DNA of 64,000 bases from assembly GCF_010726085.1 (NCBI RefSeq), contig NZ_AP022560.1, positions 2,728,001 through 2,792,000 of the forward strand, written 5' to 3'. Of the stretch, positions 43,254 to 61,500 are shown piece after piece (the first letter of the stretch is position 1; each line of letters begins with the position of its first letter). Below the pieces are notes generated by a model that was not told the origin of the DNA, searched no databases, and was given only the letters and a program-made list of their open reading frames with translations. A program made the translations under genes and the position numbers. The stretch comes from Mycolicibacterium moriokaense (GTDB lineage: Bacteria; Actinomycetota; Actinomycetes; Mycobacteriales; Mycobacteriaceae).

Positions 43254-44435
43254 ATGACAGTCCGGACCGCGGGGACACGCGAGCTGCCTGACCTGGCGCT
43301 CACGCCGGGCCGCGCGTTCGGCATCTATATCCATGTGCCGTTCTGCGTCACCCGATGCGGCTACTGCGACTTCAACACCTATACCCCGTCCGAGCTGGGC
43401 GGCGCCAATCCCGACAGCTGGCTGGCGGCCCTGCGCGCCGAGCTGGCCCTGGCCGCCGATCGGCTGGGGTCCGCCCGGCCCGAGGTCGACACCGTGTTCG
43501 TCGGCGGTGGTACCCCGTCGATGCTCGGTGGGCAGGGTCTGGCGTCGGTGCTCGACGCTGTCCGCAGCCACTTCACCCTGGCCGCCGACGCCGAGGTCAC
43601 GACTGAGGCCAACCCGGAATCCACCTCACCGCAGCTCTTCGAGCAGCTGTGCACGGCCGGGTTCACCCGGGTGTCGCTCGGGATGCAGTCGGTGGCACCG
43701 CATGTGCTGGCGGTGCTGGACCGGGTGCACTCGCCGGGCCGGGCGCTCGACGCGGCGCGTGATGCCCGCGCGGCGGGCTTTGACCACGTCAACCTCGACC
43801 TCATCTATGGGACGCCGGGGGAGACCGATGATGACCTGCGGCGTTCGGTGGATGCCGCGATCGAGGCCCAGGTCGACCACGTGTCGGCCTACGCGCTGGT
43901 CGTGGAGGACGGGACGGCGCTGGCTCGCCGGGTGCGCCGGGGCGAGATCAGCGCCCCCGACAACGACGTGCTCGCGCACCGCTACGAGCTGATCGATGCG
44001 CGGCTGTGCGCGGCCGGTCTGGGTTGGTACGAGGTGTCCAACTGGTGCCTGCCCGGCGGCGAGTGCCGACACAACATCGGCTACTGGAACGGCGGCGAAT
44101 GGTGGGGTGCCGGGCCGGGCGCGCACGGCTATGTCGGCGCGACACGATGGTGGAATGTCAAGCACCCCAACGCTTATGCGCATGCGTTGGCCGAAGGCGT
44201 GCTGCCGGTCGCCGACTTCGAGCAGCTGGACTCCGGCGCGCAGCACACCGAGGACGTGATGTTGCGGGTGAGGCTGCGCGACGGGCTGCCGCTGGCGGCC
44301 TTGAACGATGCCGAGCGGCGTCGGGCGCAGACCGTGATCGAGGACGGGCTGCTGACCCGCGACGGTGACCGTCTGATCCTCACCGACCCGGGTCGGCTGT
44401 TGGCCGACGCGGTGGTCCGGACTCTCCTTGATTAG
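43254..44435 (+). CDS. hemW: Radical SAM coproporphyrinogen III oxidase-like protein (HemW/HemN family)
   Basis: The 393-aa protein has GIYIHVPFCVTRCGYCDFNTY with the radical-SAM Cx3Cx2C cluster motif, followed by VFVGGGTPSML (SAM-binding GGTP), and RRGEISAPDNDVLAHRYELIDARL and NIGYWNGGEWWGAGPGAHGY at the C-terminal part. Its length and the lack of the N-terminal extension fit HemW, a heme chaperone, better than true HemN. It diverges from the sirA operon. This gene order (hemN beside nirA/sirA) is conserved in M. tuberculosis, where it is annotated hemN. Confidence 0.88.
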   Translation: MTVRTAGTRELPDLALTPGRAFGIYIHVPFCVTRCGYCDFNTYTPSELGGANPDSWLAALRAELALAADRLGSARPEVDTVFVGGGTPSMLGGQGLASVLDAVRSHFTLAADAEVTTEANPESTSPQLFEQLCTAGFTRVSLGMQSVAPHVLAVLDRVHSPGRALDAARDARAAGFDHVNLDLIYGTPGETDDDLRRSVDAAIEAQVDHVSAYALVVEDGTALARRVRRGEISAPDNDVLAHRYELIDARLCAAGLGWYEVSNWCLPGGECRHNIGYWNGGEWWGAGPGAHGYVGATRWWNVKHPNAYAHALAEGVLPVADFEQLDSGAQHTEDVMLRVRLRDGLPLAALNDAERRRAQTVIEDGLLTRDGDRLILTDPGRLLADAVVRTLLD

Positions 44436-45900: not shown

Positions 45901-46197
45901 ATGACCTCAGATTTGTTAGGTAAGGCTATCCTCCTCGCTAGTGTTGCGGCTGAGGCGGGCCGTTTGGAGGCCCGGTTGCGGTTGGCGGCTATTGAGAAGT
46001 GGGTGCGTTGCATGACTGCGCTCGCTGTTATCGCAATCATCGTGGGCTGCCTGCCCATCGTTGCCGGGGCGGTCTACATGTTCCTGATAGGCCCTGGGGC
46101 GTTCATTGGGGCGCTGGTGACATGCGTGATTGTGGCTGGCGGTCTGGCCGCCGCGATTTGGGGTTTGTCCGTTCTCACTCTGGCAGGTGCGTCATGA
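45901..46197 (+). CDS. Small two-span membrane protein, first gene of an unusual chain
   Basis: The 98-aa protein has a short amphipathic start (MTSDLLGKAILLASVAAEAGRLEARLRLAAIEKW) and two hydrophobic spans (about residues 37-62 and 66-93). ATG 45901 has AGGA eight bases before it; ATG 45892 adds three residues. Codon choice (TTG, GGT, GTT, GCT) is less GC-rich at third positions than in its neighbours, pointing to foreign origin. It begins a run of four ORFs linked by overlapping stops and starts. A holin-like or phage-accessory role is possible; I recognise no family. Confidence 0.6.
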   Translation: MTSDLLGKAILLASVAAEAGRLEARLRLAAIEKWVRCMTALAVIAIIVGCLPIVAGAVYMFLIGPGAFIGALVTCVIVAGGLAAAIWGLSVLTLAGAS

Positions 46198-46364
46198 CTA
46201 CTTCAACGGTGCCGTCGATTCGTTTTGTTGATCAGTTCACTGGTCGGGTTGCTCGAAGGTTTCCGTCCAGGTGTGAGGTATGCGGAATAAACCGAGTATT
46301 CACCGATGCGGTGCGGCGACTGAAGTTTGAGCTTTTGCATGAGGGCCACGGAGGGAAGTGCTGA
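46194..46364 (+). CDS. Small protein with a Cys pair (56 aa)
   Basis: The start overlaps the previous stop (ATGA at 46194-46197). The sequence contains FPSRCEVCGINRVFTDAVRRLKFELLHEG, with one CxxC pair and a C-terminal Cys that could help bind a metal. No family recognised. Codon usage is again more AT-tolerant than the host genes on either side, consistent with a mobile or phage source. Confidence 0.55.
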   Translation: MTTSTVPSIRFVDQFTGRVARRFPSRCEVCGINRVFTDAVRRLKFELLHEGHGGKC

Positions 46365-46921
46365 TGACCAGGGCCGCAGAAGTAGATGCGTATTTCCTTC
46401 CCGGCGTTTGCTTTGAACTGAACGGTGAGGTTGTTCCCGCCCGTGAACTCAGCTGGGCGATGTTCGCGTCATGCGGGTGCGTGTCGGGGATGCGCGTGAT
46501 GACAGTCGACACCGTCACGCTCGACGATGCCTGGAAGCAGATGTCGGGCAACGCCCAGATGATTAAGCGGGACAAGGAACGTGGCTTTGACATCAGATTG
46601 GTGAAGCATCGGGAGATACCGTTCGATGACTGCCCGCACAGCCCGAAGTGGGGCTTCATGCCGCCACCGGTTCCGCCCGGGGACTCATGGGCCGCGAACC
46701 GTACTGGGCGTGTGCTGCATCTAGTTCCACTGACCGCGGCCGAGGACGACAGCGTCATCGACTGGGCTGAAGACGATGGTAGTTGGAGCCTCAAGGCAAG
46801 CAGTTTGTGCGGGAAGGCGACTGAGGCGGTTCGGGTCTGGTCGAAGAAGTGGTACCGGCTCGACGGCAAGGTTGAGTGCTCGCGGTGCGTGAAGCCGGCC
46901 GAAGCGCAGGCGCTCCTATGA
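46364..46921 (+). CDS. Hypothetical protein with Cys pairs (185 aa), phage-like
   Basis: ATG 46364 overlaps the previous stop (TGATG). The protein has VDAYFLPGVCFELNGEVVPARELSWAMFASCGCVSGM at the N-terminus, MIKRDKERGFDIRLVKHREIPFDDCPHSPKWG in the middle and SSLCGKATEAVRVWSKKWYRLDGKVECSRCVKPAEAQALL at the end. The last part, with a Cys pair and a repeated basic/aromatic pattern, looks like a small metal-binding module seen in mycobacteriophage hypothetical proteins; this is an impression, not an assignment. Confidence 0.6.
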   Translation: MTRAAEVDAYFLPGVCFELNGEVVPARELSWAMFASCGCVSGMRVMTVDTVTLDDAWKQMSGNAQMIKRDKERGFDIRLVKHREIPFDDCPHSPKWGFMPPPVPPGDSWAANRTGRVLHLVPLTAAEDDSVIDWAEDDGSWSLKASSLCGKATEAVRVWSKKWYRLDGKVECSRCVKPAEAQALL

Positions 46922-47040
46922 CTATTCGTGCGTTTTTGCGTGCTGTTGGTTGGGTTGTGCCTGAACTCATCCCACCCCGACTGCCGTATGGGGTGCCTGT
47001 AGGAGACGACCAGGCTTCCGGAAGTGTGGGGCTTCGTTGA
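46918..47040 (+). CDS. Short ORF (40 aa) ending one base before the PKS start
   Basis: ATG 46918 overlaps the preceding stop (ATGA), and TGA 47038-47040 is one base before the PKS ATG at 47042. The peptide MTIRAFLRAVGWVVPELIPP... is short and unfamiliar. Its main interest is as a link that could carry ribosomes from the small-ORF chain into the PKS gene. It may also be only the untranslated remains of an insertion. Confidence 0.4.
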   Translation: MTIRAFLRAVGWVVPELIPPRLPYGVPVGDDQASGSVGLR

Positions 47041-47041
47041 C

Positions 47042-50000
47042 ATGGCCGCCACGAACGAACCGATCGCGCTCATCGGCATCGGCTGCCGCCTCGGCGGCGG
47101 CATCACCGATCCCGCCCAGTTCTGGACCTTCCTGACCGAGGGCCGAAGCGATGTTCGCGAAGTGCCCGAGGAGCGCTGGGAGCCGTATCTGCGCCGGGAC
47201 CCTCGCAACGCGGCCGTCCTGAAGGAGACCACTCGCTGGGGCACCTTCCTCGACGACCTCGCCGGTTTCGACGCCGAGTTCTTCGGCGTGTCGCCGCGCG
47301 AAGCCGAACTGATGGACCCGCAGCAGCGACTGGCGCTCGAGGTGAGTTGGGAAGCGCTCGAACACGCCGGGGTGCCGCCGCGCACGCTCGCGGGCAGCGA
47401 CACCGCGGTCCTCATGGGTGTCAACTCCGACGACTACGGCAAGTTGATCATGGAGGACCTGCCCGGCATCGAGGCCTGGACCGGGATCGGCACGTCCCTG
47501 TGCGGGATCGCCAACCGCGTGTCACATCTTCTCGACCTCCGCGGACCGAGCGTCGCGCTGGACGCCGCATGTGCCGCGTCGCTGGTCGCGGTGCATCAGG
47601 CATGCCAGATGCTGCGTGCCGGTGAGACGTCGCTGGCCCTGGCGGGTGGTGTCAGCGCGCTGATCGGACCCGGGCTCACCCGGGTACTCGACGAGGCCGG
47701 GGCGACGGCGCCGGACGGGCGGTGTAAGACGTTCGACGCGGACGCCGACGGCTACGGGCGCGGCGAGGGCGCTGCGGTGGTCGTGCTCAAACGTCTGTCC
47801 GACGCGGTGCGCGACGGCGACCGGGTGATCGCGCTCGTGCGCGGCGGAGCGGTGGCCCAGGACGGCCGCACCGTCGGCATCATGTCGCCCAACGGCGACG
47901 CCCAGGCGCACATGTTCGCGCGCGCATGCGAATCGGCGGGCGTGCCACCGCGCAGCGTGGACTTCATCGAGGCGCACGGCACCGGCACGCCGACCGGAGA
48001 CCCCACCGAGGTGCGGGCGCTGGCCTCCGTCTACGGAGTCGATCGGCCTGCCGACGCGCCGTGTCGGATCGGTTCGGTGAAGCCCAACGTCGGCCACCTC
48101 GAGGGCGGCGCGGGCGTGGTCGGTCTCATCAAGGCGGCGCTGGCCCTGCACCACGAGGCCATCCCGCCGACCGCTGGACTGAAAACCCTTACCCCTGCGG
48201 TTGATTGGGCCGCCAGCGGGCTGCGCGTGCCCACCACGGTGGAGCCTTGGCAGCGCGTCGAAGGCACGCCCCGCCGAGCCGCGGTGTGCAGCTACGGCTA
48301 CGGCGGCACGATCGCGCACGTCCTGCTCGAGGAGGCCCCGCCGGCGTCAGCGGTCGATTCGCCGATCGCAACCCCGGGGGTGATACCGATTTCGGCGCGG
48401 TCCTCCGCCCGGCTGTGCACGCAGGCGCGAGCGCTCGCTGACCACCTGCGCGCCGGCGACCACGGACTCCACCGCGTGGCAGCCGCCGCGTGGACGCGCC
48501 GCTTCCACGAGCCGGTCCGGGCTGCCGTGGTGGCCGAGGACATCGACGCTCTGGTGGCCGGGCTCGACGCGCTGGCCGACGATGAGGCCGACCCGTCCGT
48601 CGTGACCGGCCGGGCGCTCGCCGACGGCGCCGTCTGGGTGTTCTCCGGGCACGGGTCGCACTGGTCGGGCATGGGACGTCAGCTGCTCGAACGCGTGCCC
48701 GCGTTCGCCGCGGTCATCGACGCGATCGATCCGGTGTTCGGTGCCGAGTTGGGGTTCAGCGCACGCGACGCGCTGCGCAGCGGTGAGCTCGGCGGCACAG
48801 ACCGGGTGCAGGCGTTGACGTTTGCGATGCAGGTGGGCCTTGCCGCGGTGCTGCGCGAGCGAGGCGTCACACCCGCCGCGGTGATCGGGCACTCGGTCGG
48901 TGAGGTCGCCGCGTGCGTGACGGCAGGCGTGTTCGACCTGACGGTCGGCGCCGCTGTGGCGTGCTACCGCGCCCGTGGCTTCCAGTCGGTGGCGGGCCAG
49001 GGCGCGATGGCCCTGGTGCGACTGCCGTTCTCCGAAGCGGAACGGCGGCTGACTGGACACGGCGACGTGGTTGCGGCCATCAGCGCCTCACCCGCGTCGA
49101 CCGTGGTGTCCGGAAGTGTCGACGCCGTCGAACACGTCTGCCGGGTCTGGACCGACGAGGGCGTGATGGTCCGCCGGGTCAACACCGACGTGGCGTTTCA
49201 CAGCCCGATGATGGACGCGCTGACCGCCGAGCTCGGTCGACTCATCGCGGCGTTGCCAACCCCGTGGCCCGCCGAGATCCCCTTGTACACAACAGCACTG
49301 ATCGATCCGCGCTCAACGGCACCGCGCGATCAGAACTACTGGGTGGCCAATCTGCGCGACCGCGTGCGGTTCGCGGAGGCAGTGACCGCCGCCGCCGAGG
49401 ACGGCCACCGGCTGTTCCTCGAGGTGTCCGCGCATCCGGTGGTCGCGCATTCAATCGTCGAGACGCTGACGCACAGCGGGGTCGACGAGCACGCGGTCGT
49501 CCCGCTGCTGCGCCGCGAGCGCGACGAACTGCACGCGGTGGCCACGGCGGTGGGCACCCTGCACTGCAACGGCGCTCGCGTCCGGCACGGGTTTGACGCG
49601 TCCGCGCCATGGGCCGATGCCTTGCCCGTCACGCAATGGCACCATCGCCGTTTCTGGCGGACGCCGACACCTCCACCCGGTGGCCGCGGTGTGCACGACG
49701 TCGACAGCCACACCCTGCTGGGTGGGCGGATGGACGTGACCGGAGCCGTCGCGTCCACGATGTGGCAGACACGTCTGGACATGAGCACCCGGCCATACCC
49801 GGGCGATCACCCTGTGCAGAACACGGAAATCGTCCCTGCCGCAGTCATTTTGAACACGTTCCTCGGAGCCGTAGCCGATCTGAACACCCGCTCCGACCGG
49901 TCCGGTACCGATCTCGTGGACGTCCGGCTGCGCACTCCCGTCGCCCCCAGTCGTACCCGCGATGTCCAGGTGGTCCTGCAGGACCGCGCTCTGACTCTGT

Positions 50001-52201
50001 CGACACGGCTGATGGACGATGACGACGCCGAGGACGGCGGCTGGATCACCCACAGCAGTGCGGTGGCCGCGGCCGACGACGACATCGAGGATCTGCTGGG
50101 ACAGGTGATCGATGAGTCCGCCGCGCGAGCGCGGTGCACCGAAGTGCTGACACCGAACCACGTCGTGGACACGCTGACCACACTCGGCGTGGCGGCGATG
50201 GGATTCGGTTGGGAGATCCTCGATCTGCGCCGCGGTGAGGGCGAGCTGATCGCCAGGGTCGCCGGCGACGGCTACCTGACGCCACCTGCGACATGGGCGC
50301 CGCTGCTGGACGCGGCGACGTCTGCGGCCTCCACCATTTTCGACGGCCCGCCGCGACTGCGCATGCCCGCACGCATCGAACGGGTGCAGGTGTACGGCCG
50401 CCCGCCCGCCGTGGCGGTCCTGCACGTGCGCCGGCGGCCGGGAACCACCACGACCGATGTGCTGATCGCCGACGAGTCGGGGGCCGTCCACGTGTCGCTG
50501 ACGGGTATGTCCTTCGAGGAACTGGAAAGCCCTGCGGGAAGTGATCTTTCACGCATGCTGCACCACATCACCTGGCACGCGGTCCCGTGGCGGGACGACG
50601 ACCGGCCGTCATCCGTGGTCGTCGTCGGGGGAGATGCCGACACCCGGCACTTCGTGACCCGCGATCTCGTCGCCGCCGATGTGCCGCACGCGGTGTGTGC
50701 CGGTCCGGACGACATCGCCGCGTCCGACGCGGAGTTGGACCGCGGTGCGGTGGTGTTGGTGCTGTGCCGCAACCACGACTCGCCCCAGCAGTCGGTCGAT
50801 GTGGTGATGCGGACGCTGAGACACCTCCTCGACCACGGTGCGAAGGCGCGCATGTGGGTGCTGACCGAACGCGTGCACGAAGGCAAGAATGTGGCCCACG
50901 CGCCGCTGTGGGGTCTGGCCAGAGTCGCTGCCGCCGAGCACCCCAAGGTCTTCGGCGGCGTGCTCGACCTCGGCGAGCCGCACCTGCCCGTCGGCGCATT
51001 GGCGTCGCTGCACGGCCATCCTGTCGTCGTGTTCCGCGACGGTGTCGCTCAGGTGGCGCGGCTGGCGTTCGCAGGCCGGGGGACCGGTACCCCCATGCAG
51101 TGTTCGGCGGGTGGCACCTACCTGATCACCGGCGGCACAGGCGTTCTCGGTCTGCGCATGGCGCAACGGCTCGCCGACATCGGTGCACGACGACTGGTGT
51201 TGCTGTCCCGCACCGGCATGCTCGAACGCGCCGAGTGGCGGGATGCGGGGGAGTCCGAGTTGATCCGCACCGTGGCCGCGTTGGAAGAGCGCGGGGTGTC
51301 GGTGCACATCATCCCGCTCGACATCGGCGCGCCGGACGCGGCCGACGCGTTACGCGCCGCGCTGCGGTATCTGCCGCCGGTGCGCGGTGTCATCCACGCG
51401 GCGGGTGTGGAAGCCGGTGCGCTGCTTGTCAACACGAGCCCCGCCGACTTCGCGGCCGCAATGCACCCGAAGGTCGACGGCACGTTGACCTTGCACGAGG
51501 TGTTCCCGCCGGAGCAGTTGGATTGGATGGTGCTCTTCTCGTCGTGCGGCTACCTCGCAGGCTTCCCTGGACAGGGGGCGTACGCGTGCGCGAACTCGTT
51601 CCTCGACGTCATGGCGCGCCACCGCCGAGGCCTCGGCGACCGCACCGTCAGCATCGCGTGGACGGCATGGCGGGGGCTGGGGATGGGCTCGACGTCCGGC
51701 TTCGTCGCGGCGCAACTGGACGCGCTCGGCATGGGCACCATCGCCGCCGATGAAGCCGTCCGCGCACTGGACCTGGCGATGCGCGACGGCGAATCGAACA
51801 TCGTTGTGCTGCCGGTCCTTCCGGAAGCCGCAGCGGTGCCGATGCTCGCCGACGTGGCACCAGTCGAGGACGGCGGTTCGGACATCCGGGATGCTTTGTT
51901 GGACAGCTTTGCCGGCGACGACGGCGAGCCCGATCCGAAGCGCGTCGCCGAGCGGGTGGTCGCCGCGGTGGCCGCCCAGCTCGGACTGCCGGAGGAAGAC
52001 GTGGACACCGCGCTGCCGTTGGTGGAGATCGGTGTCGACTCGATCATGACCGTCGGGCTGCTGCGCCAACTCGAGAAGCAGACCGGACTGTCGCTGCCGC
52101 CGACGCTGCTGTGGGAGTACCCGACCGCGGCGGCCGTCTCAGAGCGAATCTCCGAACTCCTGACGGCGCCGGATGTTTCGCAGGAAGTTCCGGTGCCCTA
52201 G
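47042..52201 (+). CDS. Iterative type I polyketide synthase, 6-methylsalicylic acid synthase-like (KS-AT-DH-KR-ACP)
   Basis: The 1,719-aa protein shows ketosynthase (about 6-425; VALDAACAASLVA with Cys177, EAHGTGTPTGD, NVGHLEGGAG), acyltransferase (about 525-830; GHSVGE with Ser618, VAFHS suggesting malonyl), dehydratase/product-template-like domain (about 880-1170; DHPVQNTEIVPAAVI with His923), ketoreductase (about 1360-1545; GGTGVLG at 1364, SSCGYLAGFPGQGAYACAN) and acyl carrier (GVDSIM, Ser1667). Domain order, length and motifs such as GIMSPNGDAQAHM and YGYGGTIAHVLLEEAP fit 6-MSA/ChlB1-type iterative synthases, which build 6-methylsalicylate from acetyl- and three malonyl-CoA. The gene converges on mbtA. 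An alternative is a source of the hydroxybutyryl unit usually made by MbtC/MbtD. No iron box was found upstream. Confidence 0.85.
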   Translation: MAATNEPIALIGIGCRLGGGITDPAQFWTFLTEGRSDVREVPEERWEPYLRRDPRNAAVLKETTRWGTFLDDLAGFDAEFFGVSPREAELMDPQQRLALEVSWEALEHAGVPPRTLAGSDTAVLMGVNSDDYGKLIMEDLPGIEAWTGIGTSLCGIANRVSHLLDLRGPSVALDAACAASLVAVHQACQMLRAGETSLALAGGVSALIGPGLTRVLDEAGATAPDGRCKTFDADADGYGRGEGAAVVVLKRLSDAVRDGDRVIALVRGGAVAQDGRTVGIMSPNGDAQAHMFARACESAGVPPRSVDFIEAHGTGTPTGDPTEVRALASVYGVDRPADAPCRIGSVKPNVGHLEGGAGVVGLIKAALALHHEAIPPTAGLKTLTPAVDWAASGLRVPTTVEPWQRVEGTPRRAAVCSYGYGGTIAHVLLEEAPPASAVDSPIATPGVIPISARSSARLCTQARALADHLRAGDHGLHRVAAAAWTRRFHEPVRAAVVAEDIDALVAGLDALADDEADPSVVTGRALADGAVWVFSGHGSHWSGMGRQLLERVPAFAAVIDAIDPVFGAELGFSARDALRSGELGGTDRVQALTFAMQVGLAAVLRERGVTPAAVIGHSVGEVAACVTAGVFDLTVGAAVACYRARGFQSVAGQGAMALVRLPFSEAERRLTGHGDVVAAISASPASTVVSGSVDAVEHVCRVWTDEGVMVRRVNTDVAFHSPMMDALTAELGRLIAALPTPWPAEIPLYTTALIDPRSTAPRDQNYWVANLRDRVRFAEAVTAAAEDGHRLFLEVSAHPVVAHSIVETLTHSGVDEHAVVPLLRRERDELHAVATAVGTLHCNGARVRHGFDASAPWADALPVTQWHHRRFWRTPTPPPGGRGVHDVDSHTLLGGRMDVTGAVASTMWQTRLDMSTRPYPGDHPVQNTEIVPAAVILNTFLGAVADLNTRSDRSGTDLVDVRLRTPVAPSRTRDVQVVLQDRALTLSTRLMDDDDAEDGGWITHSSAVAAADDDIEDLLGQVIDESAARARCTEVLTPNHVVDTLTTLGVAAMGFGWEILDLRRGEGELIARVAGDGYLTPPATWAPLLDAATSAASTIFDGPPRLRMPARIERVQVYGRPPAVAVLHVRRRPGTTTTDVLIADESGAVHVSLTGMSFEELESPAGSDLSRMLHHITWHAVPWRDDDRPSSVVVVGGDADTRHFVTRDLVAADVPHAVCAGPDDIAASDAELDRGAVVLVLCRNHDSPQQSVDVVMRTLRHLLDHGAKARMWVLTERVHEGKNVAHAPLWGLARVAAAEHPKVFGGVLDLGEPHLPVGALASLHGHPVVVFRDGVAQVARLAFAGRGTGTPMQCSAGGTYLITGGTGVLGLRMAQRLADIGARRLVLLSRTGMLERAEWRDAGESELIRTVAALEERGVSVHIIPLDIGAPDAADALRAALRYLPPVRGVIHAAGVEAGALLVNTSPADFAAAMHPKVDGTLTLHEVFPPEQLDWMVLFSSCGYLAGFPGQGAYACANSFLDVMARHRRGLGDRTVSIAWTAWRGLGMGSTSGFVAAQLDALGMGTIAADEAVRALDLAMRDGESNIVVLPVLPEAAAVPMLADVAPVEDGGSDIRDALLDSFAGDDGEPDPKRVAERVVAAVAAQLGLPEEDVDTALPLVEIGVDSIMTVGLLRQLEKQTGLSLPPTLLWEYPTAAAVSERISELLTAPDVSQEVPVP

Positions 52202-52206
52202 TACCG

Positions 52207-53859
52207 TCAGGACGACACGAGCTGCGCCACGACCTTCTTCTTGTCCACCTTGCCGACGGCCGTCTTGGGCAGCGTCGACATCGGGACAAGCACGTCGGGC
52301 CGTGAGTGTGCCGACACTCCGCGTTCGTCGAGGAACTGATTCAGCTCGCTGAGCGTGATCGCAGGCCCGCTGAAGACGACTGCCGCGCAGATCTTTTCGC
52401 CCAGGTACTCGTCGGGCAGGGCGACGGCCGCCGCGGCATAGATCGCCGGATGGGCGAACAGGTGCTCCTCGAGATCGGACGCAGACACGGTCTCCCCGCC
52501 GCGGTGGATGACGTCCTTGATGCGACCGGTGACCTCGACGTAACCCGTCCTGGGACCGTCGGCGAAGATCCGCACCCGATCGCCGGTGCGGTAGAAGCCG
52601 TCGGGGCTGAACGACCGCGCGTTCGCCTCGTCGGCCCGGTAGTAGCCGTTGAGGGTGTAGGGCCCGCGCACCAGCAATTCACCCTCCTCGCCGGGGGCGA
52701 CCTCGCGGCCCGCCTCGTCGACGACGCGCATCTCGTCGTGCGGCGACATCGGCCGGCCCTGCGTGTTGACCACGACGTCGACATCGTCGCCGGGGCGGGT
52801 GAAATTCAGCATCCCCTCGGCCATTCCAAAGATCTGCTGCAGTCCCGGCGTCAAACCGTCCAGGATGTAGCGCGCCTCCTCGGCGGTCATCCGCGAACCG
52901 CCCACCTGGAGCAGACGCAGCGACGTGGGCAGCACGGGTTCCCAATCGCACGCCTGCGTCCAGACCTTGGCCAGTGCGTTCACCAGCGCGGTCACCGTCA
53001 CACGGTGCCGGTCGATCAACGCGAATGCCGACTCGGGGCTGGGATCGGTGGTGAACACCGACGTCGCGCCGACGGTCATCGACCCCAGCAGACCGGGGCA
53101 GGCGAGCGGGAAGTTGTGGCCGGCGGGCAAGGCGACGAGGTAGACGTCTTCGCCGGTGAGTCCGCACTCTTTCGCGCAGGCGGTCGCGTTGTAGACGTAG
53201 TCATCGTGCGTGCGCGCGATCAGCTTGGGCAGTCCGGTCGTGCCGCCCGACACCAGAAGCAGGGCGGGCGTACTCGTGTCGGCGGCTGCGCGGTCAGGGA
53301 CGGGGCCGTCGAAATCGGCCAGCTCTGACCAGGATTCGTACTGCCCGGGGTCACCATCGACGAATACGTGGGTCAGGCGCGGGTTGTCGGCCATCAACTC
53401 GCGGGCCAGTTCGCGATAGTCGAACCCGGCGACCTGGTCGGCGATGACCACGCCGACCGCACCGCTGACTTCGGCGAAGTGCGACAGCTCGGCATAGCGG
53501 TGGCCCGGAAGGCACATCACCGGTACCACGCCCGCGCGTAGGAGGCCGAACAGCGCCACGGCGAACTGCGCCGTGTTGGGCAGCTGCAGCAGCACTCGAT
53601 CACCGGCCGCGATGCCGCGATCCGCCAACGCCGCAGCGATGCGGTCGGCGCGCGCGTGCAGTTCGGCGAAGGTGTACGAAACCTTCGGATCGATCACTGC
53701 GACGCGGTCCGGCCAGGCCGCGGCGGCGTCGCCGAGGATGGAATCCAGCGGTCGCCCGGTCCAGTAACCCGCCTCCCGATACTGCTGGGCGCGCTCGGGC
53801 GGGAACGGCACGAAGCCAGTGGTGAGATCGCTCCGCTGAGGCTCTAAACCAGTGCTCAT
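52207..53859 (-). CDS. mbtA: Aryl-AMP ligase MbtA (salicylate-activating)
   Basis: The 550-aa protein is a stand-alone adenylating enzyme: LLLVSGGTTGLPKLIARTHDDYVYNA (P-loop), PAGHNFPLACPGLLGS with the aromatic-acid-binding His/Asn region, QQIFGMAEGMLNFTRPGDD, YRTGDRVR and TAVGKVDKKKV with the C-terminal catalytic Lys. These are the features of DhbE/MbtA ligases that load salicylate or relatives onto the aryl carrier of MbtB. It diverges from mbtB, sharing the two iron boxes at 53904-53945. It converges on the 6-MSAS-like gene with five bases between stops, so its preferred acid may be 6-methylsalicylate. Confidence 0.93.
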   Translation of the reverse strand: MSTGLEPQRSDLTTGFVPFPPERAQQYREAGYWTGRPLDSILGDAAAAWPDRVAVIDPKVSYTFAELHARADRIAAALADRGIAAGDRVLLQLPNTAQFAVALFGLLRAGVVPVMCLPGHRYAELSHFAEVSGAVGVVIADQVAGFDYRELARELMADNPRLTHVFVDGDPGQYESWSELADFDGPVPDRAAADTSTPALLLVSGGTTGLPKLIARTHDDYVYNATACAKECGLTGEDVYLVALPAGHNFPLACPGLLGSMTVGATSVFTTDPSPESAFALIDRHRVTVTALVNALAKVWTQACDWEPVLPTSLRLLQVGGSRMTAEEARYILDGLTPGLQQIFGMAEGMLNFTRPGDDVDVVVNTQGRPMSPHDEMRVVDEAGREVAPGEEGELLVRGPYTLNGYYRADEANARSFSPDGFYRTGDRVRIFADGPRTGYVEVTGRIKDVIHRGGETVSASDLEEHLFAHPAIYAAAAVALPDEYLGEKICAAVVFSGPAITLSELNQFLDERGVSAHSRPDVLVPMSTLPKTAVGKVDKKKVVAQLVSS

Positions 53860-53903: not shown

Positions 53904-53945
53904 ATAAGGTAGCCTCGCCGAATTAGTTAGGGCAGCCTTTACTAA
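53904..53945. promoter_or_regulatory. Two IdeR-type iron boxes between mbtA and mbtB
   Basis: TTAGGGCAGCCTTTACTAA (53927-53945) matches the IdeR consensus TTAGGTTAGGCTAACCTAA at 13 of 19 positions with both TTAG/CTAA ends. A weaker box, ATAAGGTAGCCTCGCCGAA (53904-53922), matches at about 12. Their centres are 23 bases apart. Iron-loaded IdeR bound here would repress both divergent genes. Confidence 0.85.
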
Positions 53946-53958
53946 TTTGGAGGACAGT

Positions 53959-56900
53959 GTGGGTGTTGCGGGCGGGGCAGACAACAGCGGTGGTCGTTCT
54001 CTTGACACCGTCCGCGCGGAGGTCGCAGAGCTGCTCGGCGTGACGCCCGACGAGGTCGACCCTCACGCCGACCTGATCGCGTCCGGCCTCGATTCGATCC
54101 GCATGATGTCGCTGTCCGGGCGTTGGCGGAAGCAGGGAATCGACATCAACTTCGCCGCATTGGCGGAGACCCCGACGGTGGCCGCGTGGTCGGCGCTGGT
54201 GGCGGGGCAGTCCACGTCCGATGAATCCGTCGAGGTCGATGATGCCGTCCACGCAGATGACGGTGACGTCTTCCCGCTGACGCCCATGCAGCACGCGATG
54301 TGGCTGGGCCGTAACGACGATCAGCAACTCGGTGGCGTTGCTGCCCACCTGTACGTCGAGTTCGACGGCGCCGGCGTCGATCCGGACCGCCTGCGCGACG
54401 CGGCGGCGAAACTCGTTGCGCGGCACCCGATGTTGCGTGTGGAGATCCTGCCCGACGGCACCCAGCGGATCGGCGATCGCGACCTACCCGTCACCGTCTA
54501 CGACCTGCGTGAACTCGACATGGAAGCGGCCGAGCAGCGGCTGGAAGACCTGCGCCACCAGAAATCGCATCAAATGCTCGACGGCGATGTGCTCGAGCTG
54601 AGCCTGTCACTGCTGCCGGACGGGCGGACGCGGTTACACGTCGACATGGACATGGACGCCGCCGACGCGGTGAGCTACCGCAACTTCATGGCCGACCTCG
54701 CGGTGTTCTACCGCGGTGGAGAACTGCCCGAACTGCGCTACACCTACCGCCAATACCGCGGCGCGCTCACCGCCGCCGATCCCGGCCCCTCCGACGAGGA
54801 CCGGCAGTGGTGGGCCGACCGCATCCCCGAGTTGCCCGAATCGCCTGCGCTGCCGCTGGTTCCACTTGCCGAACAGGCCGACCCCCGACGCAGTATCCGG
54901 CTCTGGCATGTCTTCGACGTGGACACGCGCGACGCGCTGTTCGCGGCCGCGCACCGGCGTGGGTGCACGCCGGCGATGGCCGTTGCCGCGTCGTACTCGA
55001 ATGCGTTGGCGCGGTGGTCCAGCGGGTCCCGGTTCCTGCTCAACCTGCCGATGTTCGGCCGGGAGCCGTTCCATCCCGATGTCGACAAGCTGGTCGGCTG
55101 CTTCACCTCGTCGTTGATGCTCGATATCGATCTGACTCAGGCCAGAACCCCCGCGGAGCGGACCCGCGCGGTGCAGCAGACGTTGCACGACGCCGCTCGT
55201 CATTCGAGCTACTCCGGCCTGTCCGTACTGCGCGACCTGGGCCGCCACCGCGGCACCCAGACGCTCGCCCCGATCGTGTACACCAGTGCGCTCGGGCTCG
55301 GTGACCTGTTCGCCGGTGAGGTCACCGACGCATTCGGTGCGCCGGTGTGGACCATTTCCCAAGGCCCGCAGGTACTCATCGACGCGCAGGCGACACCCCT
55401 GGCGACCGGTCTGATGATCAACTGGGATGTCCGCATCGCCGCGTTTCGGCCAGGAGTTCCCGAAGCGATGTTCGCCTACCACGTGGCGGAACTGGCCCGG
55501 CTGGCCGCCGACGACGCGGCGTGGGACGCCTCCGATCCGCCCGCGGTGCCCGAGAGTCAACGCGCGGTGCGCCATGCGGTGAACAGCGTGACGGCGCCGC
55601 GAAGTGGAGAGGCGCTCCACGACGGGTTCTTCCGCAATGCGCTGGCGACACCCGATGCGCCCGCCGTGTTCAGCGAGGACGGCTGCCTGACCTATGCAGA
55701 GTTGCGCACGCGTGCGCTCGCCATTGCGGAAACGTTACGCCGCAATGGGGTTCGGCCCGGCGACCTGGTCGCGCTCGTCGGCCCCAAGTGCGCCGGGCAG
55801 ATCCCCGCGATGCTCGGCATCCTCGCCGCAGGCGCGGCCTATCTCCCGATCGGCGCCGACCAGCCTGCCGAACGGACCGCCAGGATCCTCGAGTCCAGCG
55901 ACGTCGCTGCGGTGCTGCTCTGCGGCGACGGCCGCGCCGAGGCGACCGCACCGGTCCTCACCGTCGCGTCGGCGATGCAGGCTCACATCGACGCCGAACC
56001 CACCCCGGTCGATCCAGGAGACCTGGCCTACGTGTTGTTCACGTCGGGGTCGACTGGCGAGCCGAAGGGTGTCGAGCTGACCCACGACGCGGTGATGAAC
56101 ACCGTCGAGTTCGTCAGTCGCCGTTTCGATCTCGGGGCGACGGATCGTACCCTGGCGCTGTCGACGCTGGAATGCGACCACTCGGTGGTCGACGTTTTCG
56201 GGATTCTGCGCGCCGGGGGAGCGGTCGTCGTGGTCGACGAACAGTACCGGCGCGATCCTGACAAGTGGGCCGAGCTCGTCGAACGTCACTCCGTCACCAT
56301 GCTGAATTTCATGCCCGGCTGGATGGAGATGCTGCTCCCTGTCGGTGGCTCGCGGTTGTCCGGGCTTCGCGTGGTGCTGCTCGGCGGTGATTGGGTACGC
56401 CCCGAACTCATCCGCGGTCTGCGCAAGTGCGCACCCGGCGTGCGCGCACACGGCCTCGGCGGAGCGACCGAACTCGCGATCCATGCGGCCATCTGCGACG
56501 TCGCGGATCCGGAGCCGGAGTGGACCGCGGTGCCGTACGGCACGCCGCTGCCCAACAATGTCTGCCGCGTGGTCGCCGCCGATGGCTCCGACTGCCCGGA
56601 CTGGGTGCCGGGTGAGCTGTGGGTGTCGGGGCGGGGCATCGCGCGCGGCTACCGTGGCCGGCCCGACCTGACCGCCGAGAAGTTCGTCGAGTACGACGGC
56701 CGAACGTGGTATCGGACAGGCGATCTCGTCCGCTACCGGCCAGACGGCAGTCTCGACTTCGTCGGTCGTATCGACCACCGCGTCAAGATCAGTAACTACC
56801 GAGTCGAACTCGGTGACGTCGAGTCGGCGCTCAAGCGGGTGCCGCACGTCGACGGGGCGGTCGCGGCGGTGCTGCCGGGAGAGCCGGATCTGCTTGCGGC

Positions 56901-57432
56901 ACTTGTGAGCACCGATGATCCGAACCTCGATTCGCAGTCGGTCGCCGCCGCGCTGACCGAGCTGGTGCCCGAGCACATGATCCCCAAGATCATCGTCGTA
57001 TCCGACCGGATCCCTTACACGGTGAACGGAAAGCTCGACCGCAACGCCGTCACACGAGAGCTCGCGCAAGCCGAACCGCCTGCGGCGAACGCCTATCGGG
57101 CCCCGTCGACGCCGCTGGAATCCGCGCTGGTCGGCATTGTCGCCGAGATACTCGACGTCGCGACCGACACGGTCGGGGTCGACGACGACTTCTTCTCTCT
57201 CGGTGGCGATTCCGTCTTGGCGACCCAGGTGATCGCCCGGGTCCGGGATTGGCTAGATACACCGACGGCAAAGGTCGCGGACATGTTCGCGGCGCGATGC
57301 GTTTCGAAGTTGGCCGACCGACTCGTCGAACGCGAACCGGACGCCGACCGGCTCGCGATGGTCGCCGAGGTGTACCTGGAGGTCGCCGGGATGGAGAGCG
57401 CCGAGGTGCTGTCCGAACTGGCGAGCGGCTAG
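53959..57432 (+). CDS. mbtB: Mycobactin NRPS MbtB (ArCP-Cy-A-PCP), without thioesterase
   Basis: GTG 53959 follows GGAGGA (53949-53954), giving 1,157 aa. An aryl carrier (GLDSIRMM, Ser46) comes first, then a cyclisation domain (about 85-510, from FPLTPMQHAMWLGRNDDQQLGG), an adenylation domain (about 545-1040, YVLFTSGSTGEPKGVEL near 691, YRTGDLVRYRPDG) and a carrier (LGGDSVLATQ, Ser1085). It condenses the aryl acid with Ser/Thr and forms the oxazoline ring. M. tuberculosis MbtB has a C-terminal thioesterase that is absent here; the protein ends LEVAGMESAEVLSELASG. Its stop overlaps that of the convergent oxidoreductase gene (CTAG). Confidence 0.94.
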   Translation: MGVAGGADNSGGRSLDTVRAEVAELLGVTPDEVDPHADLIASGLDSIRMMSLSGRWRKQGIDINFAALAETPTVAAWSALVAGQSTSDESVEVDDAVHADDGDVFPLTPMQHAMWLGRNDDQQLGGVAAHLYVEFDGAGVDPDRLRDAAAKLVARHPMLRVEILPDGTQRIGDRDLPVTVYDLRELDMEAAEQRLEDLRHQKSHQMLDGDVLELSLSLLPDGRTRLHVDMDMDAADAVSYRNFMADLAVFYRGGELPELRYTYRQYRGALTAADPGPSDEDRQWWADRIPELPESPALPLVPLAEQADPRRSIRLWHVFDVDTRDALFAAAHRRGCTPAMAVAASYSNALARWSSGSRFLLNLPMFGREPFHPDVDKLVGCFTSSLMLDIDLTQARTPAERTRAVQQTLHDAARHSSYSGLSVLRDLGRHRGTQTLAPIVYTSALGLGDLFAGEVTDAFGAPVWTISQGPQVLIDAQATPLATGLMINWDVRIAAFRPGVPEAMFAYHVAELARLAADDAAWDASDPPAVPESQRAVRHAVNSVTAPRSGEALHDGFFRNALATPDAPAVFSEDGCLTYAELRTRALAIAETLRRNGVRPGDLVALVGPKCAGQIPAMLGILAAGAAYLPIGADQPAERTARILESSDVAAVLLCGDGRAEATAPVLTVASAMQAHIDAEPTPVDPGDLAYVLFTSGSTGEPKGVELTHDAVMNTVEFVSRRFDLGATDRTLALSTLECDHSVVDVFGILRAGGAVVVVDEQYRRDPDKWAELVERHSVTMLNFMPGWMEMLLPVGGSRLSGLRVVLLGGDWVRPELIRGLRKCAPGVRAHGLGGATELAIHAAICDVADPEPEWTAVPYGTPLPNNVCRVVAADGSDCPDWVPGELWVSGRGIARGYRGRPDLTAEKFVEYDGRTWYRTGDLVRYRPDGSLDFVGRIDHRVKISNYRVELGDVESALKRVPHVDGAVAAVLPGEPDLLAALVSTDDPNLDSQSVAAALTELVPEHMIPKIIVVSDRIPYTVNGKLDRNAVTRELAQAEPPAANAYRAPSTPLESALVGIVAEILDVATDTVGVDDDFFSLGGDSVLATQVIARVRDWLDTPTAKVADMFAARCVSKLADRLVEREPDADRLAMVAEVYLEVAGMESAEVLSELASG

Positions 57433-58289
57433 CTCACCGCGGCACCGAGCCGGCGCCACTGCTCGTGGGGGAACTCCCGCGGGTCCGCGGTGAGCACCTG
57501 GACGCAAACGTGGTCAGCCCCCGCTTGCAGGTGTTCGTTCACCCGGTTCAGCACGGTCTCCTCGTCACCCCATGCGATCAACGCGTCGAACAGCCGGTCG
57601 CTGACCGAATCGAGCTCCTCCTGGGTGAAACCCGAGCGCAACAAGTTGTTGGCGTAGTTCGGCAGCGCCAGATAGGACCGCAACCAGTTGGTCCCGACCG
57701 CGCGGGCCTCCTCGCGGTCGTTCGTCAGGAAGACGGTCTGCTCCGGCAGCAGCAGCGGTCCCTCGCCGAGGTGCTCACGGGCGTAGCGGGTGTGATCGGG
57801 CGTGACGAGGTAGGGGTGCGCGCCCCGGGACCGCGTCGCGGCGAGTTCGAGCATCTTCGGTCCCAGCGCCGCGAGCACGCGGTTGGCGACGGGCACCGGG
57901 TTCTCGGTCGCATCGATGCCGTCCAGGTAGGCCCGCGTCGCGGCGAGTGGCTTGCGGTAGAGACCGGGCTCCTTGGAATCGATGAGCGGCGCGTGGCTGA
58001 CCCCGATGCCCAAGAGGAAGCGTTCCCCATGCTCAGCGGTCAGCGAGGCGTACGTCGCCGCCACCTCCGCGGGCTCGTGCATCCATAGATTCAGAATCCC
58101 GGTGGCGATGACCACCTGCTTGGTCGACGACAGCAGGTTGGCGACCGAATCGAGCACCGGGCCGCCGACGTCCGGGATCCATAGGGCGGTGAATCCGAGT
58201 TCCTCCAACTCCGCGGCGGCTTCGGCGGCCTGCCCGGGATCGCCGTAGCGCAACTGCGAACTCCATACACCGATGCCTGCTAGATCCAT
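57429..58289 (-). CDS. LLM-class oxidoreductase, probably F420-dependent
   Basis: From ATG 58289, with GGAAAGGAT upstream, the protein has 286 aa: LAGIGVWSSQLRYGDPGQAAEAAAELEELGFTALWIPDVGG, LSSTKQVVIATGILNLWMHEPAEVAATYASLTAEHGERFLLGIGVSHAPLID and RVLAALGPKMLELAATRSRGAHPYLVTPDHT. This matches the mycobacterial F420-dependent LLM families (TIGR03620 type) more than the FMN monooxygenases in the first half of the window. It lies between mbtB and mbtE in the opposite direction, where mbtC/mbtD are usually found, and close to the iron boxes of mbtE, so it could be iron-regulated. Role in siderophore metabolism unknown. Confidence 0.82.
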   Translation of the reverse strand: MDLAGIGVWSSQLRYGDPGQAAEAAAELEELGFTALWIPDVGGPVLDSVANLLSSTKQVVIATGILNLWMHEPAEVAATYASLTAEHGERFLLGIGVSHAPLIDSKEPGLYRKPLAATRAYLDGIDATENPVPVANRVLAALGPKMLELAATRSRGAHPYLVTPDHTRYAREHLGEGPLLLPEQTVFLTNDREEARAVGTNWLRSYLALPNYANNLLRSGFTQEELDSVSDRLFDALIAWGDEETVLNRVNEHLQAGADHVCVQVLTADPREFPHEQWRRLGAAVS

Positions 58290-58384
58290 GTATCGATCCT
58301 TTCCCGGGGAACTATCGGCCCACGCTACCGGCGGTGAAAATCGATCCGCCCGGGGGCACATGTAGGGGTCATCGAAAGGCCCAT

Positions 58385-58422
58385 TTAGGGTAACCTCACC
58401 TACTTAGGACAGCCTGCACTAA
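58385..58422. promoter_or_regulatory. Two abutting IdeR-type iron boxes before mbtE
   Basis: TTAGGGTAACCTCACCTAC (58385-58403) and TTAGGACAGCCTGCACTAA (58404-58422) are two 19-base boxes directly end to end. Each resembles the IdeR consensus, with about 13 matches for the first; the second has the TTAG...CTAA ends. They sit about 105 bases before the mbtE start and about 95 bases before the divergent oxidoreductase, so both may be iron-controlled. Confidence 0.82.
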
Positions 58423-58527
58423 TTCACGCTCGGGGAAGTTTGGCGTGCAGGCACAGCTGCGAGACACCACCGGGGCTGAGCATCGCCGGTCTCATTCCCG
58501 GAACGATCAGAGAGAGTGGAAACACGC

Positions 58528-61500
58528 GTGACTGACATCGCAGACACCCGCGAGGAGCTTGGTGAGCACCGGCTGGAGCTGATCCGCCGCAGGTTGGCCG
58601 AACGGGGATTGAAGTCGATCAGCCCCGTGCCGCAGAGCGCCCGCAGCGCCGAGATGTCCGATGGTCAGCGCCGCATGTGGTTCGTTCAGATGGCCGATCC
58701 CACCGGCGCGATGCTCAACGTCTGCCTGTCGTACCGCATCACGGGAGCACTGGATGCGGCGAGGCTGCGGGACGCCGTCGACGCCGTGTCGGCGCGCCAT
58801 GAGTTGCTGCGCACCACCTACGCGGCCGATTCCGACGGTGAACCGCAGCCGATCGTGCACCCCGACCTCACACCCGGCTGGTCCTTCCACGACCTGTCCA
58901 CTCTGGCTGACACACCTCAGCGGTTGCGCCTGGAAGTATTGGCGCAGCGAGAGTTCAGCGCGCCCTTCGACCTCAGTGCCGATGCCCCGCTGCGCTTGAC
59001 GCTCGTCCGCACGGGACCCGACGAGTACGTCATGTTGCTGGTCGCACACCACATCGCCTGGGATGACTGCTGCTGGCGGGTGTTCTTCGCCGATCTCACC
59101 CGGGCCTACAACGGTGAAGACCTCGGCCCGTCCCTTCCGGTGCCGTCCCACGCGGACAGTGCGACCGCTGACGACCTCGACTACTGGCGCACGGTGATGG
59201 CCGATCCGCCGGAGCCTCTCGAGCTTCCGGGACCCAACGGCTCTGCCATACCGACGAATTGGCGTTCGGCGCGCACCACGTTGGAGTTGCCCGACGCGAC
59301 GGTCGCTCGCGTGGCGGCCTTGGCCAAGGAGTCCGGTGCGACCCCGTACATGGTGTTGCTCGCCGCGTTCGGAGTGCTGATCCACCGCTACACGCACTCC
59401 GACGATTTCCTCGTCGCCGCGCCGGTGCTCAATCGCAGCGCTGAGCTCGAGAACGTCATCGGGTACTACGGCAACACCGTCGCACTGCGGCTGCGTCCGC
59501 AGCGTCGCCAGACCTTCCGCGATGTCCTCGCCCATGTCCGAGAGACGACGGTCGGCGCGTTCGCGCATCAGCACGTCAACATCGACCGCGTGGTCCGCGA
59601 GCTCAACCCCGACCGCAGGCACGGCGCGGAGCGGATGACCCGGGTGACCTTCGGTGCGCGGGGCGCCGACGGGGCAGGCTTCAACCCGCCCGGCATCACG
59701 TGTCGTCGTGCCGACCTGCGTGCGCAATTCACCCAACTGCCACTGGGATTCATGGTGGAGTTCGACGACGCCGGGGTCGAGGTGGAGGCGGAATACCTCG
59801 TTGAGCTGCTCGATGCCGGACTCGTTCGACAAATGGTGCAGCACTACTCGGTGTTGTTGGACAGCGCCCTCGCTGATCCCGAGAAGCCGATCAGCGAACT
59901 CGATCTGATGACGCCCGCCGATATCGACTGGCTGCGCCGGGTATCGGCTGGCGAGGAATTCGCCGCTGATGCACAGACATTGGCCACCTTGGTGGAATCT
60001 CAGGTCGCCCGCACGCCGGATGCCGTGGCCGTGGTCTACGAAGGACGGCACTACACCTACCGCGAGATCAACGCGGCGGCGAACCGGGTCGCGCACTGGC
60101 TGATCGCGAAGGGTATCGGCACCGAGGACCGCATCGCGGTGCTACTCGACCGGTCACCCGAACTGGTGATCACCGCGCTCGGTGTGATCAAGGCGGGAGC
60201 GGTGTACCTGCCGGTCGACCCGACCTACCCGGAGGACCGGCTCAGCTTCATCCTGTCCGACAGCGACCCGAAACTCGTGCTGCGCGAGGCCGTCACCGAA
60301 CTCGACGGCTTCCGGGACGACAATCCGACCGACGCCGACCGGGTCCGGCCGCTGAGCCCGGACAGCACCGCTTACCTGATCTACACGTCGGGTTCGACCG
60401 GGCTGCCCAAGGGCGTGCCCGTGCCGCACCGGCCCGTCGCCGAGTACTTCGTCTGGTTCAAGGGTGACTACCAGATCGACGAGAACGAACGACTACTGCA
60501 GGTGGCGTCCCCGAGCTTCGACGTCTCCATGGGGGAGATCTTCGGCATGCTGGGATGTGGCGGGCGCCTGGTGATCCCGCGTCCGGACGGCCTGCGCGAC
60601 ATCGGCTATCTCACCGAGCTGCTGCACACCGAGGGCATCACCTCGATGCACTTTGTCCCCTCGCTGCTGGGTCTGTTCCTGTCGCTGCCCGGTGTCAATC
60701 AGTGGCGGACCCTGCAGCGGGTGCCGATCGGCGGCGAGGCGCTGCCTGGTGAGCTCGCCGACAAGTTCCATGCCACGTTCGATGCGCTGCTGCACAACTT
60801 CTACGGTCCGACCGAGACGGTGATCAACGCCAGCCGGTACAAGGTCGAGGGCAAGCAGGGCACCCGAATCGTTCCGATCGGCACGCCGAAGATCAACACC
60901 CAGATCCACCTGCTCGACGAATCCTTGCAGCCGGTGCCGGTCGGCGTGATCGGCGAGATCTACATCGGCGGAACACATGTCGCGCAGGGTTATCACCGTA
61001 GGCCGACGCTCACCGCCGAGAGGTTCGTCGCCGACCCCTTCACATCAGGTGGCCGGCTCTATCGGTCGGGTGACCTCGCCCGTCGCGACGCCGCCGGCGA
61101 CATCGAGTTTGTCGGACGCGCCGACGAGCAGGTCAAGATCCGCGGGTTCCGGATCGAACTCGGTGAGGTCGCCGCCGCGATCTCCGTGGACCCCAGCGTG
61201 GGCCAGGCGGTCGTCGTCGTCAGCGATCTGCCGAACCTCGGCAAGAGCCTCGTGGGCTATCTGACGCCTGCCGACGACGTCGAGGATGTCGACGTCGAAC
61301 GCATCCGAACCCGTGTTGCCGCTGCGCTTCCCGAGTACATGACACCCGCGGCGTACGTCGTGCTCGATGAGATCCCGATCACCGCGCACGGCAAGATCGA
61401 TCGCACCGCGCTACCGGAACCCGACATCGGCTCCGGCGTGGAGTACCGCGAGCCGGAAGAGGGCACGCAGCGTCGCATCGCCGAGCTGTTCGCCGAACTG

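What the first reader, a model, noticed from the sequence alone, without database searches (positions are those of the whole stretch)
47042..53859. 6-methylsalicylate synthase-like PKS beside mbtA: a methylated aryl cap for mycobactin
The PKS has KS-AT-DH-KR-ACP order and motifs of 6-MSA synthases and faces mbtA across six bases. Some mycobacterial species are known to make mycobactins carrying 6-methylsalicylate, and 6-methylsalicylic acid has been reported from mycobacteria. This pair would give the genetic basis, with MbtA tuned to the methylated acid.
Basis: partly seen in the sequence, partly recalled or inferred. Interest (0 to 1): 0.85.

Follow-up and report, generated by a model that had tools for sequence, protein, structure and literature searches.

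The report
Polyketide-made aryl cap for mycobactin
In many environmental mycobacteria the usual gene for making salicylate, the first piece of their iron-catching molecule mycobactin, appears to be replaced by a polyketide enzyme that probably makes a methylated version of it, and the enzyme that loads this piece differs to match.

Summary
A 1719-aa KS-AT-DH-KR-ACP synthase (47042-52201, +) converges on an MbtA-like ligase (52207-53859, -), five bases apart. The complete genome has no MbtI salicylate synthase above cut-off. Of 396 genomes of the genus, 190 have MbtI only, 105 this PKS only, 20 both, 81 neither. mbtA was found in 125 of 125 PKS-bearing genomes, 80 of 80 sampled MbtI-only ones, and 1 of 80 with neither. 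The PKS sits in the hemW-mbtA interval that holds mbtI in other species, or beside mbtI there, usually behind an iron box. MbtA and the start of MbtB each split once by chemotype; on the rpoB tree the chemotypes are interleaved, 9 changes. MbtA residues 294 and 343, beside and in the aryl pocket, differ between the groups without exception in 79 and 59 rows. Best reading: the PKS makes the aryl cap, most likely 6-methylsalicylate, instead of or beside MbtI. The product was not measured. No paper listed by my ten searches makes this gene link; 6-methylsalicyl mycobactins themselves are old chemistry (recalled).

The parts
47042..52201 (+). 6-methylsalicylate-synthase-type iterative PKS (KS-AT-DH-KR-ACP, 1719 aa); reading frame open from GTG 47024
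   Evidence: KS Cys, AT Ser and VAFH motif, DH His/Asp, KR Ser/Tyr/Asn and ACP Ser conserved in relatives
52207..53859 (-). mbtA: aryl-acid AMP ligase of the PKS-linked lineage (N294, I343, M350)
53947..57432 (+). mbtB-like NRPS (two carrier, one condensation, one adenylation domain), PKS-linked lineage
53927..53945 (.). iron (IdeR-type) box between divergent mbtA and mbtB
45916..45934 (.). iron (IdeR-type) box of the PKS promoter, displaced from the PKS by an insert
45932..47010 (.). about 1.08-kb insert between iron box and PKS start, absent from the three relatives aligned; small ORFs of no known family (ends approximate)
58385..58422 (.). two adjacent iron-box-like sites upstream of the next NRPS
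58516..63624 (+). second NRPS of the cluster (condensation x2, adenylation, carrier x2; MbtE-like by position, not tested)
43254..44435 (+). hemW, the conserved flank of the mbtI/PKS interval

Best explanation
The PKS is the aryl-acid source of this organism's mycobactin. It condenses one acetyl and three malonyl units, reduces once and closes the ring to 6-methylsalicylic acid (inferred from the domain set and family). MbtA adenylates the free acid and loads it on the carrier domain of MbtB, which builds the 2-(2-hydroxy-6-methylphenyl)oxazoline cap (inferred from the known MbtA/MbtB pathway). The PKS sits where many relatives have mbtI, is usually iron-boxed like mbtA, and in 105 of 125 sampled genomes that have it MbtI is gone. 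Shown here: architecture, absence of MbtI, near-exclusion, shared genomic interval, linkage to mbtA, a chemotype-specific MbtA/MbtB lineage, and pocket-region substitutions. Not shown: product identity, how the acid leaves the PKS, and MbtA kinetics.
For: No MbtI above cut-off in the complete genome (best 170 bits against 325) and no PchB-type pyruvate lyase above cut-off (29.7 bits against 73.35). Of 396 genomes: MbtI only 190, PKS only 105, both 20, neither 81. mbtA present in 125 of 125 PKS-bearing genomes, 80 of 80 sampled MbtI-only genomes (of 190) and 1 of 80 of the 'neither' set (of 81). Gene order: hemW > PKS > < mbtA in 43 of 60 PKS-only loci fetched; hemW > mbtI > PKS > < mbtA in 15 of 20 'both' loci; mbtI > < mbtA in 36 of 59 MbtI-only loci, 12 of them with hemW in view. 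Iron box before the PKS in 45 of 46 convergent PKS-only loci (at least 13 of 19 bases) against 36 of 420 random windows from the same loci; in 17 tandem loci none before the PKS but 17 of 17 before mbtA. MbtA tree of 80 genomes: one split (SH-aLRT 100) separates PKS-linked from MbtI-linked MbtA, while rpoB needs 9 changes, 5 forced by starred branches. MbtB start: one split (support 82). Residues 294 (N/P) and 343 (I/V) differ in 79 of 79 against 59 of 59. Position 343 matches M. tuberculosis Val352 by motif, named as an active-site residue in PMC10745912 (passages). Catalytic residues conserved in 106 rows (88 distinct), the KS histidines in 104. A KS-tree study found four Mycobacterium PKSs of unknown function sister to fungal 6-MSA synthases (PMC2636887, passages; I did not verify that they are these genes).
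Against: No chemical data. Characterised 6-MSA, orsellinate and naphthoate synthases could not be put on a tree here, so 6-MSA rather than a naphthoate rests on known mycobactin chemistry (recalled). ChlB1 does not release 6-MSA by itself and needs ChlB3 (PMC9573744, passages); no consistent release partner was seen in the ten PKS-mbtA gaps I read. In 20 genomes MbtI is also present, so the PKS is not always the only source. In 23 of 59 MbtI-only loci mbtI is not in the fetched stretch, so the interval is not the only home of mbtI. The pocket substitutions sit on one branch of the gene tree and may be lineage markers: 5 independent pairs all agree but give p = 0.0625. In the window strain an insert separates the iron box from the PKS, so iron control there is uncertain. 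In one search only the best four candidate places of most genomes were scored.
Confidence: 0.86

Rival explanations
1. The PKS is the aryl source, but its product is another small aromatic acid (orsellinic acid, a naphthoic acid or another alkyl salicylate), so the mycobactin has a different unusual cap.
For: The same domain order occurs in naphthoate synthases (recalled); the product was not tested. PMC2636887 (passages) lists 6-MSA, orsellinate and naphthoate moieties among products of the bacterial relatives.
Against: KR motifs kept in all 106 rows argue against orsellinate. MbtA keeps the salicylate-type Asn and Cys in every row and Phe in all but one, which argues against a bicyclic acid. 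Known unusual mycobactin caps are 6-methylsalicyl (recalled).
Confidence: 0.08
2. The PKS makes something unrelated to mycobactin, such as a lipid or antibiotic, and only happens to sit beside mbtA.
For: Mycobacteria have many PKSs; NCBIfam's best match is a general type I PKS model below its cut-off (1135 against 1740 bits).
Against: 118 of 118 same-contig pairs within about 13.2 kb, near-exclusion with MbtI, the shared interval, iron boxes and co-segregation of the MbtA/MbtB lineage.
Confidence: 0.03
3. Salicylate comes from another unrecognised route and the PKS adds a second, minor cap.
For: 20 of 125 PKS-bearing genomes do keep MbtI.
Against: No MbtI or PchB above cut-off in the window genome; 105 genomes have the PKS without MbtI.
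Confidence: 0.03

Closest known systems
Bacterial 6-MSA synthases (ChlB1 of chlorothricin; cahuitamycin 6-MSAS) and fungal 6-MSAS
   Same: KS-AT-DH-KR-ACP on one chain, no ER or TE found; the cahuitamycin 6-MSAS is proposed to feed 6-MSA through an aryl-AMP ligase into a salicyl-type NRPS product (PMC4757757, passages)
   Different: Here the gene sits in the mycobactin locus, often as the only aryl source; cahuitamycin's is unlinked and coexists with the salicylate synthase CahI (PMC4757757, passages); ChlB1 needs ChlB3 for transfer (PMC9573744, passages)
MbtI-MbtA-MbtB start of mycobactin biosynthesis (M. tuberculosis, M. smegmatis; recalled)
   Same: Shared interval and flanks in many species, same ligase and NRPS families, iron boxes
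   Different: Aryl acid from a polyketide synthase instead of chorismate; MbtA of a separate lineage
6-methylsalicyl mycobactins such as P, F, H and A (recalled, no paper seen)
   Same: Would be the product class
   Different: Known as structures; the gene was not linked to them in any paper that my searches listed

Membership tests
6-methylsalicylic acid synthase-type iterative PKS | single module KS-AT-DH-KR-ACP without ER or TE | tested here: met
6-methylsalicylic acid synthase-type iterative PKS | intact catalytic residues, malonyl-type AT (VAFH) | tested here: met
   KS Cys, AT, DH, KR and ACP residues in 106 of 106 rows (88 distinct); KS histidines in 104. Reading VAFH as malonyl-type is recalled
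6-methylsalicylic acid synthase-type iterative PKS | phylogenetic grouping with characterised 6-MSA synthases | not tested
   no characterised sequences on hand; homologue search switched off
6-methylsalicylic acid synthase-type iterative PKS | iterative synthesis of 6-MSA | not testable with these tools
   needs expression
Mycobactin aryl-AMP ligase (MbtA) | sequence family and position beside mbtB | tested here: met
   below the NCBIfam DHB_AMP_lig cut-off
Mycobactin aryl-AMP ligase (MbtA) | specificity for salicylate or 6-methylsalicylate | not testable with these tools
   residue pattern only
MbtI salicylate synthase pathway | MbtI (TIGR03494) in the genome | tested here: not met

The most novel reading that the evidence does not exclude
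The aryl end of mycobactin is a swappable chemotype cassette: two ancient versions of the mbtA-mbtB start, one tied to mbtI and one to a 6-MSA synthase, have been exchanged or differentially kept across the genus against the species tree, so that the methyl group may mark a private siderophore that neighbours' uptake cannot use.
Probability: 0.35. Interest if true: 0.75.

Novelty: new variant of a known kind. Interest (0 to 1): 0.66.

Why it matters
It would give the gene for 6-methylsalicyl mycobactins, show a chorismate-derived step replaced by a polyketide step in a core iron pathway of about a quarter to a third of the sampled genus (105 PKS only, 125 with PKS, of 396), and mean that MbtI is absent from species such as M. 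vaccae, M. iranicum and M. austroafricanum (no match in the genomes searched), which matters for any work that takes MbtI as a general mycobacterial target. It also makes the role of the methyl group directly testable.

Tried and rejected
First rpoB tree was wrong because 9 rows were taken from the wrong strand; redone. An early idea that Ala to Gly before His-Asn-Phe marks the PKS-linked MbtA was dropped: 27 of 59 MbtI-only MbtAs have Gly too. Plasmid search found only 36-38% matches in three records, so no sign of a plasmid carrier. Phage DNA search of the insert found nothing. ORFs in the PKS-mbtA gaps of ten loci (up to four each) were read as translations only and looked like unrelated passengers. 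Ten paper searches listed no paper that I saw link a PKS to mycobactin; lists were capped (20 of 49; 25 of 107; 25 of 743), and the library holds only open-licence papers. Ten papers were opened, passages only. Structure prediction was not used.
Full report
Observation. The PKS has KS, AT, DH, KR and ACP in that order with no ER or TE family found. Its stop faces the stop of an MbtA-like ligase across five bases. Upstream lies hemW; downstream, divergent from mbtA, an MbtB-like NRPS.

Is MbtI there? The window lies in a single-contig genome of 6,225,779 bases, 100% complete by the tool's estimate. The salicylate synthase model TIGR03494 (cut-off 325 bits) finds three places of 170, 90 and 82 bits, all below cut-off and presumably other chorismate enzymes. 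The pyruvate-lyase model TIGR01803 finds nothing above cut-off.

Distribution. Of 396 genomes drawn from the genus (the window's included), 210 have MbtI over cut-off and 125 have the PKS, sought with its DH-to-KR stretch at E up to 1e-40. Only the four best candidate places were scored in most genomes of these two calls. Cross-tabulated: 190 MbtI only, 105 PKS only, 20 both, 81 neither; Fisher p = 1e-24, not corrected for kinship. The ligase was then sought at E up to 1e-130: 63 of 63 and 62 of 62 PKS-bearing genomes have it, 80 of 80 sampled MbtI-only genomes (of 190), and 1 of 80 'neither' genomes (G395 not searched). That one, G355, has it on a 5.4-kb contig. So nearly every genome with mbtA has one aryl source or the other, and genomes without mbtA lack both. 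Of 30 named PKS-bearing genomes, 7 also have MbtI (M. septicum, M. peregrinum x3, M. porcinum, M. houstonense, strain GA-1841) and 23 show none, among them M. vaccae, M. austroafricanum, M. iranicum x3, M. tusciae, M. neglectum, M. deserti and M. barrassiae (completeness not given there).

Outside the genus. Of 298 genomes of the order, 41 match the PKS stretch at E up to 1e-25: 22 of the same genus (some only through another PKS of about 30% identity) and 19 of other families at 32-49% identity. None of the listed matches is from another genus of the same family. Some outside matches lie in frames of about 1300 aa, too short for the full set of domains; I did not analyse them further.

Place. 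In 118 of 125 genomes the PKS and mbtA share a contig and lie within about 13.2 kb: 88 convergent, 30 with the PKS behind mbtA on the same strand. Of 60 PKS-only loci fetched, 43 read hemW > PKS > < mbtA, 4 PKS > < mbtA without hemW in view, and 13 have the tandem form (9 with hemW in view). Of 20 'both' loci, 15 read hemW > mbtI > PKS > < mbtA, four have the tandem form with mbtI elsewhere in the genome, and one (G075) is decayed. Of 59 MbtI-only loci, 36 read mbtI > < mbtA, 12 of them with hemW in view; in 23 mbtI is outside the fetched stretch. So the PKS sits in the interval where many relatives keep mbtI, or beside it; mbtI itself is not always there.

Iron control. With a 19-base iron-box consensus (recalled), 45 of 46 convergent PKS-only loci and 15 of 16 convergent 'both' loci have a site of at least 13 matches in the 500 bases before the PKS, median 50 and 55 bases away (sites of 14 or more). 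In 17 tandem loci none has one before the PKS, but 17 of 17 have one before mbtA, as an operon would. Random windows from the same loci reach 13 in 36 of 420, some probably real boxes; other PKS starts in MbtI-only loci reach it in 0 of 29. Before mbtI the count is 29 of 31 in MbtI-only loci but 7 of 15 in 'both' loci, so in the latter mbtI's own box is often weaker or missing. The exception among the 46 is the window strain: its box (45916-45934) is cut off from the PKS by an insert of about 1.08 kb that three relatives lack.

Lineages. MbtA identity to the window's is 72-100% in PKS-bearing genomes (G075's partial gene is 79%) and 61-71% in MbtI-only ones. For 80 genomes with rpoB, the MbtA tree has one branch (SH-aLRT 100) that separates the two groups; four rows with long branches are flagged, all MbtI-only. 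On the rpoB tree PKS presence needs 9 changes, 5 of them forced by well-supported branches. The first 430 residues of MbtB also split once (support 82, 122 rows, one with a very long branch), while the neighbour HemW needs 6 changes in 74 rows, only 10 of them MbtI-only. PKS and MbtA distances correlate beyond rpoB (partial r 0.68, 53 genomes, raw distances, no tree correction). This fits a linked unit that was exchanged, or an old pair of versions differentially lost; I cannot tell which.

Pocket. Three MbtA columns of 550 share no residue between 79 PKS-bearing and 59 MbtI-only rows: 231, 294 (N against P) and 343 (I against V); 350 (M against L) is nearly so. I take M. tuberculosis numbers as window plus 9 from shared motifs; no named M. 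tuberculosis sequence was aligned. PMC10745912 (passages and part of a docking table) names Val302, Val352 and Leu360 among active-site contacts, so 343 is in, and 294 and 350 beside, that set; two of the three strict columns fall within one residue of the 19 residues I took from it (p = 0.01). The four solved ligases whose alignments were shown keep P, V and L there; one, 5wm2, is CahJ (recalled), proposed to load 6-methylsalicylate (PMC4757757, passages). The changes are therefore not needed to accept the acid; preference is a guess. On the rpoB tree five independent pairs all agree, p = 0.0625.

Chemistry. The PKS retains its catalytic residues across relatives (two of 106 rows lack the KS histidine stretches). 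6-MSA is the simplest product of a KR-bearing enzyme of this family, and 6-methylsalicyl mycobactins are known (recalled). How the acid leaves is open: ChlB1 needs ChlB3 (PMC9573744, passages). That MbtA is kept in every PKS-bearing genome (partial in G075) suggests a free acid.

Prior work. PMC2636887 (passages) reported four Mycobacterium PKSs of unknown function as sister to fungal 6-MSA synthases. PMC10667711 (passages) reported mbtI missing from M. porcinum isolates, and the word polyketide does not occur in its main text; the M. porcinum genome here has an MbtI-family gene beside the PKS (L011). No paper listed by my ten searches was seen to make the link; three listings were capped and most subscription literature is not in that library.

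Noticed in passing
window 45932-47010: About 1.08-kb insert between iron box and PKS start, absent in three relatives; its two ORFs scanned match no Pfam or PHROG family and the stretch matches no phage DNA.
   Followed up: partly
window 57429-58361; L100, L102, L109 and others: An F420-dependent LLM oxidoreductase gene (TIGR03620) lies in the fetched segment of 13 of 60 PKS-only loci, 0 of 20 'both' and 0 of 59 MbtI-only; in four named relatives near the window (L004, L022-L024) it lies behind mbtB.
   Followed up: partly
L072, L098, L101, L104, L109, L111, L115, L118, L082, L121: The gap between PKS and mbtA holds 1.5-5.3 kb of varied, seemingly unrelated ORFs in these loci; an insertion-prone spot.
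   Followed up: partly
'both' loci: A good iron box precedes mbtI in 29 of 31 MbtI-only loci but only 7 of 15 loci that also carry the PKS, as if mbtI were losing iron control there.
   Followed up: no
genus sample: 81 of 396 genomes lack both aryl sources; 79 of the 80 searched lack mbtA too, so mycobactin seems absent there.
   Followed up: no
L065, L067, L071, L083: Four genomes carry the tandem mbtA-PKS form and an MbtI-family gene far away; its role is unknown.
   Followed up: no
L066 (G075): Decayed locus: MbtI with two stops, PKS in two pieces, partial mbtA.
   Followed up: no
L011 (M. porcinum): MbtI-family gene (67% to the query) beside the PKS, although PMC10667711 reports mbtI missing from M. 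porcinum isolates.
   Followed up: partly
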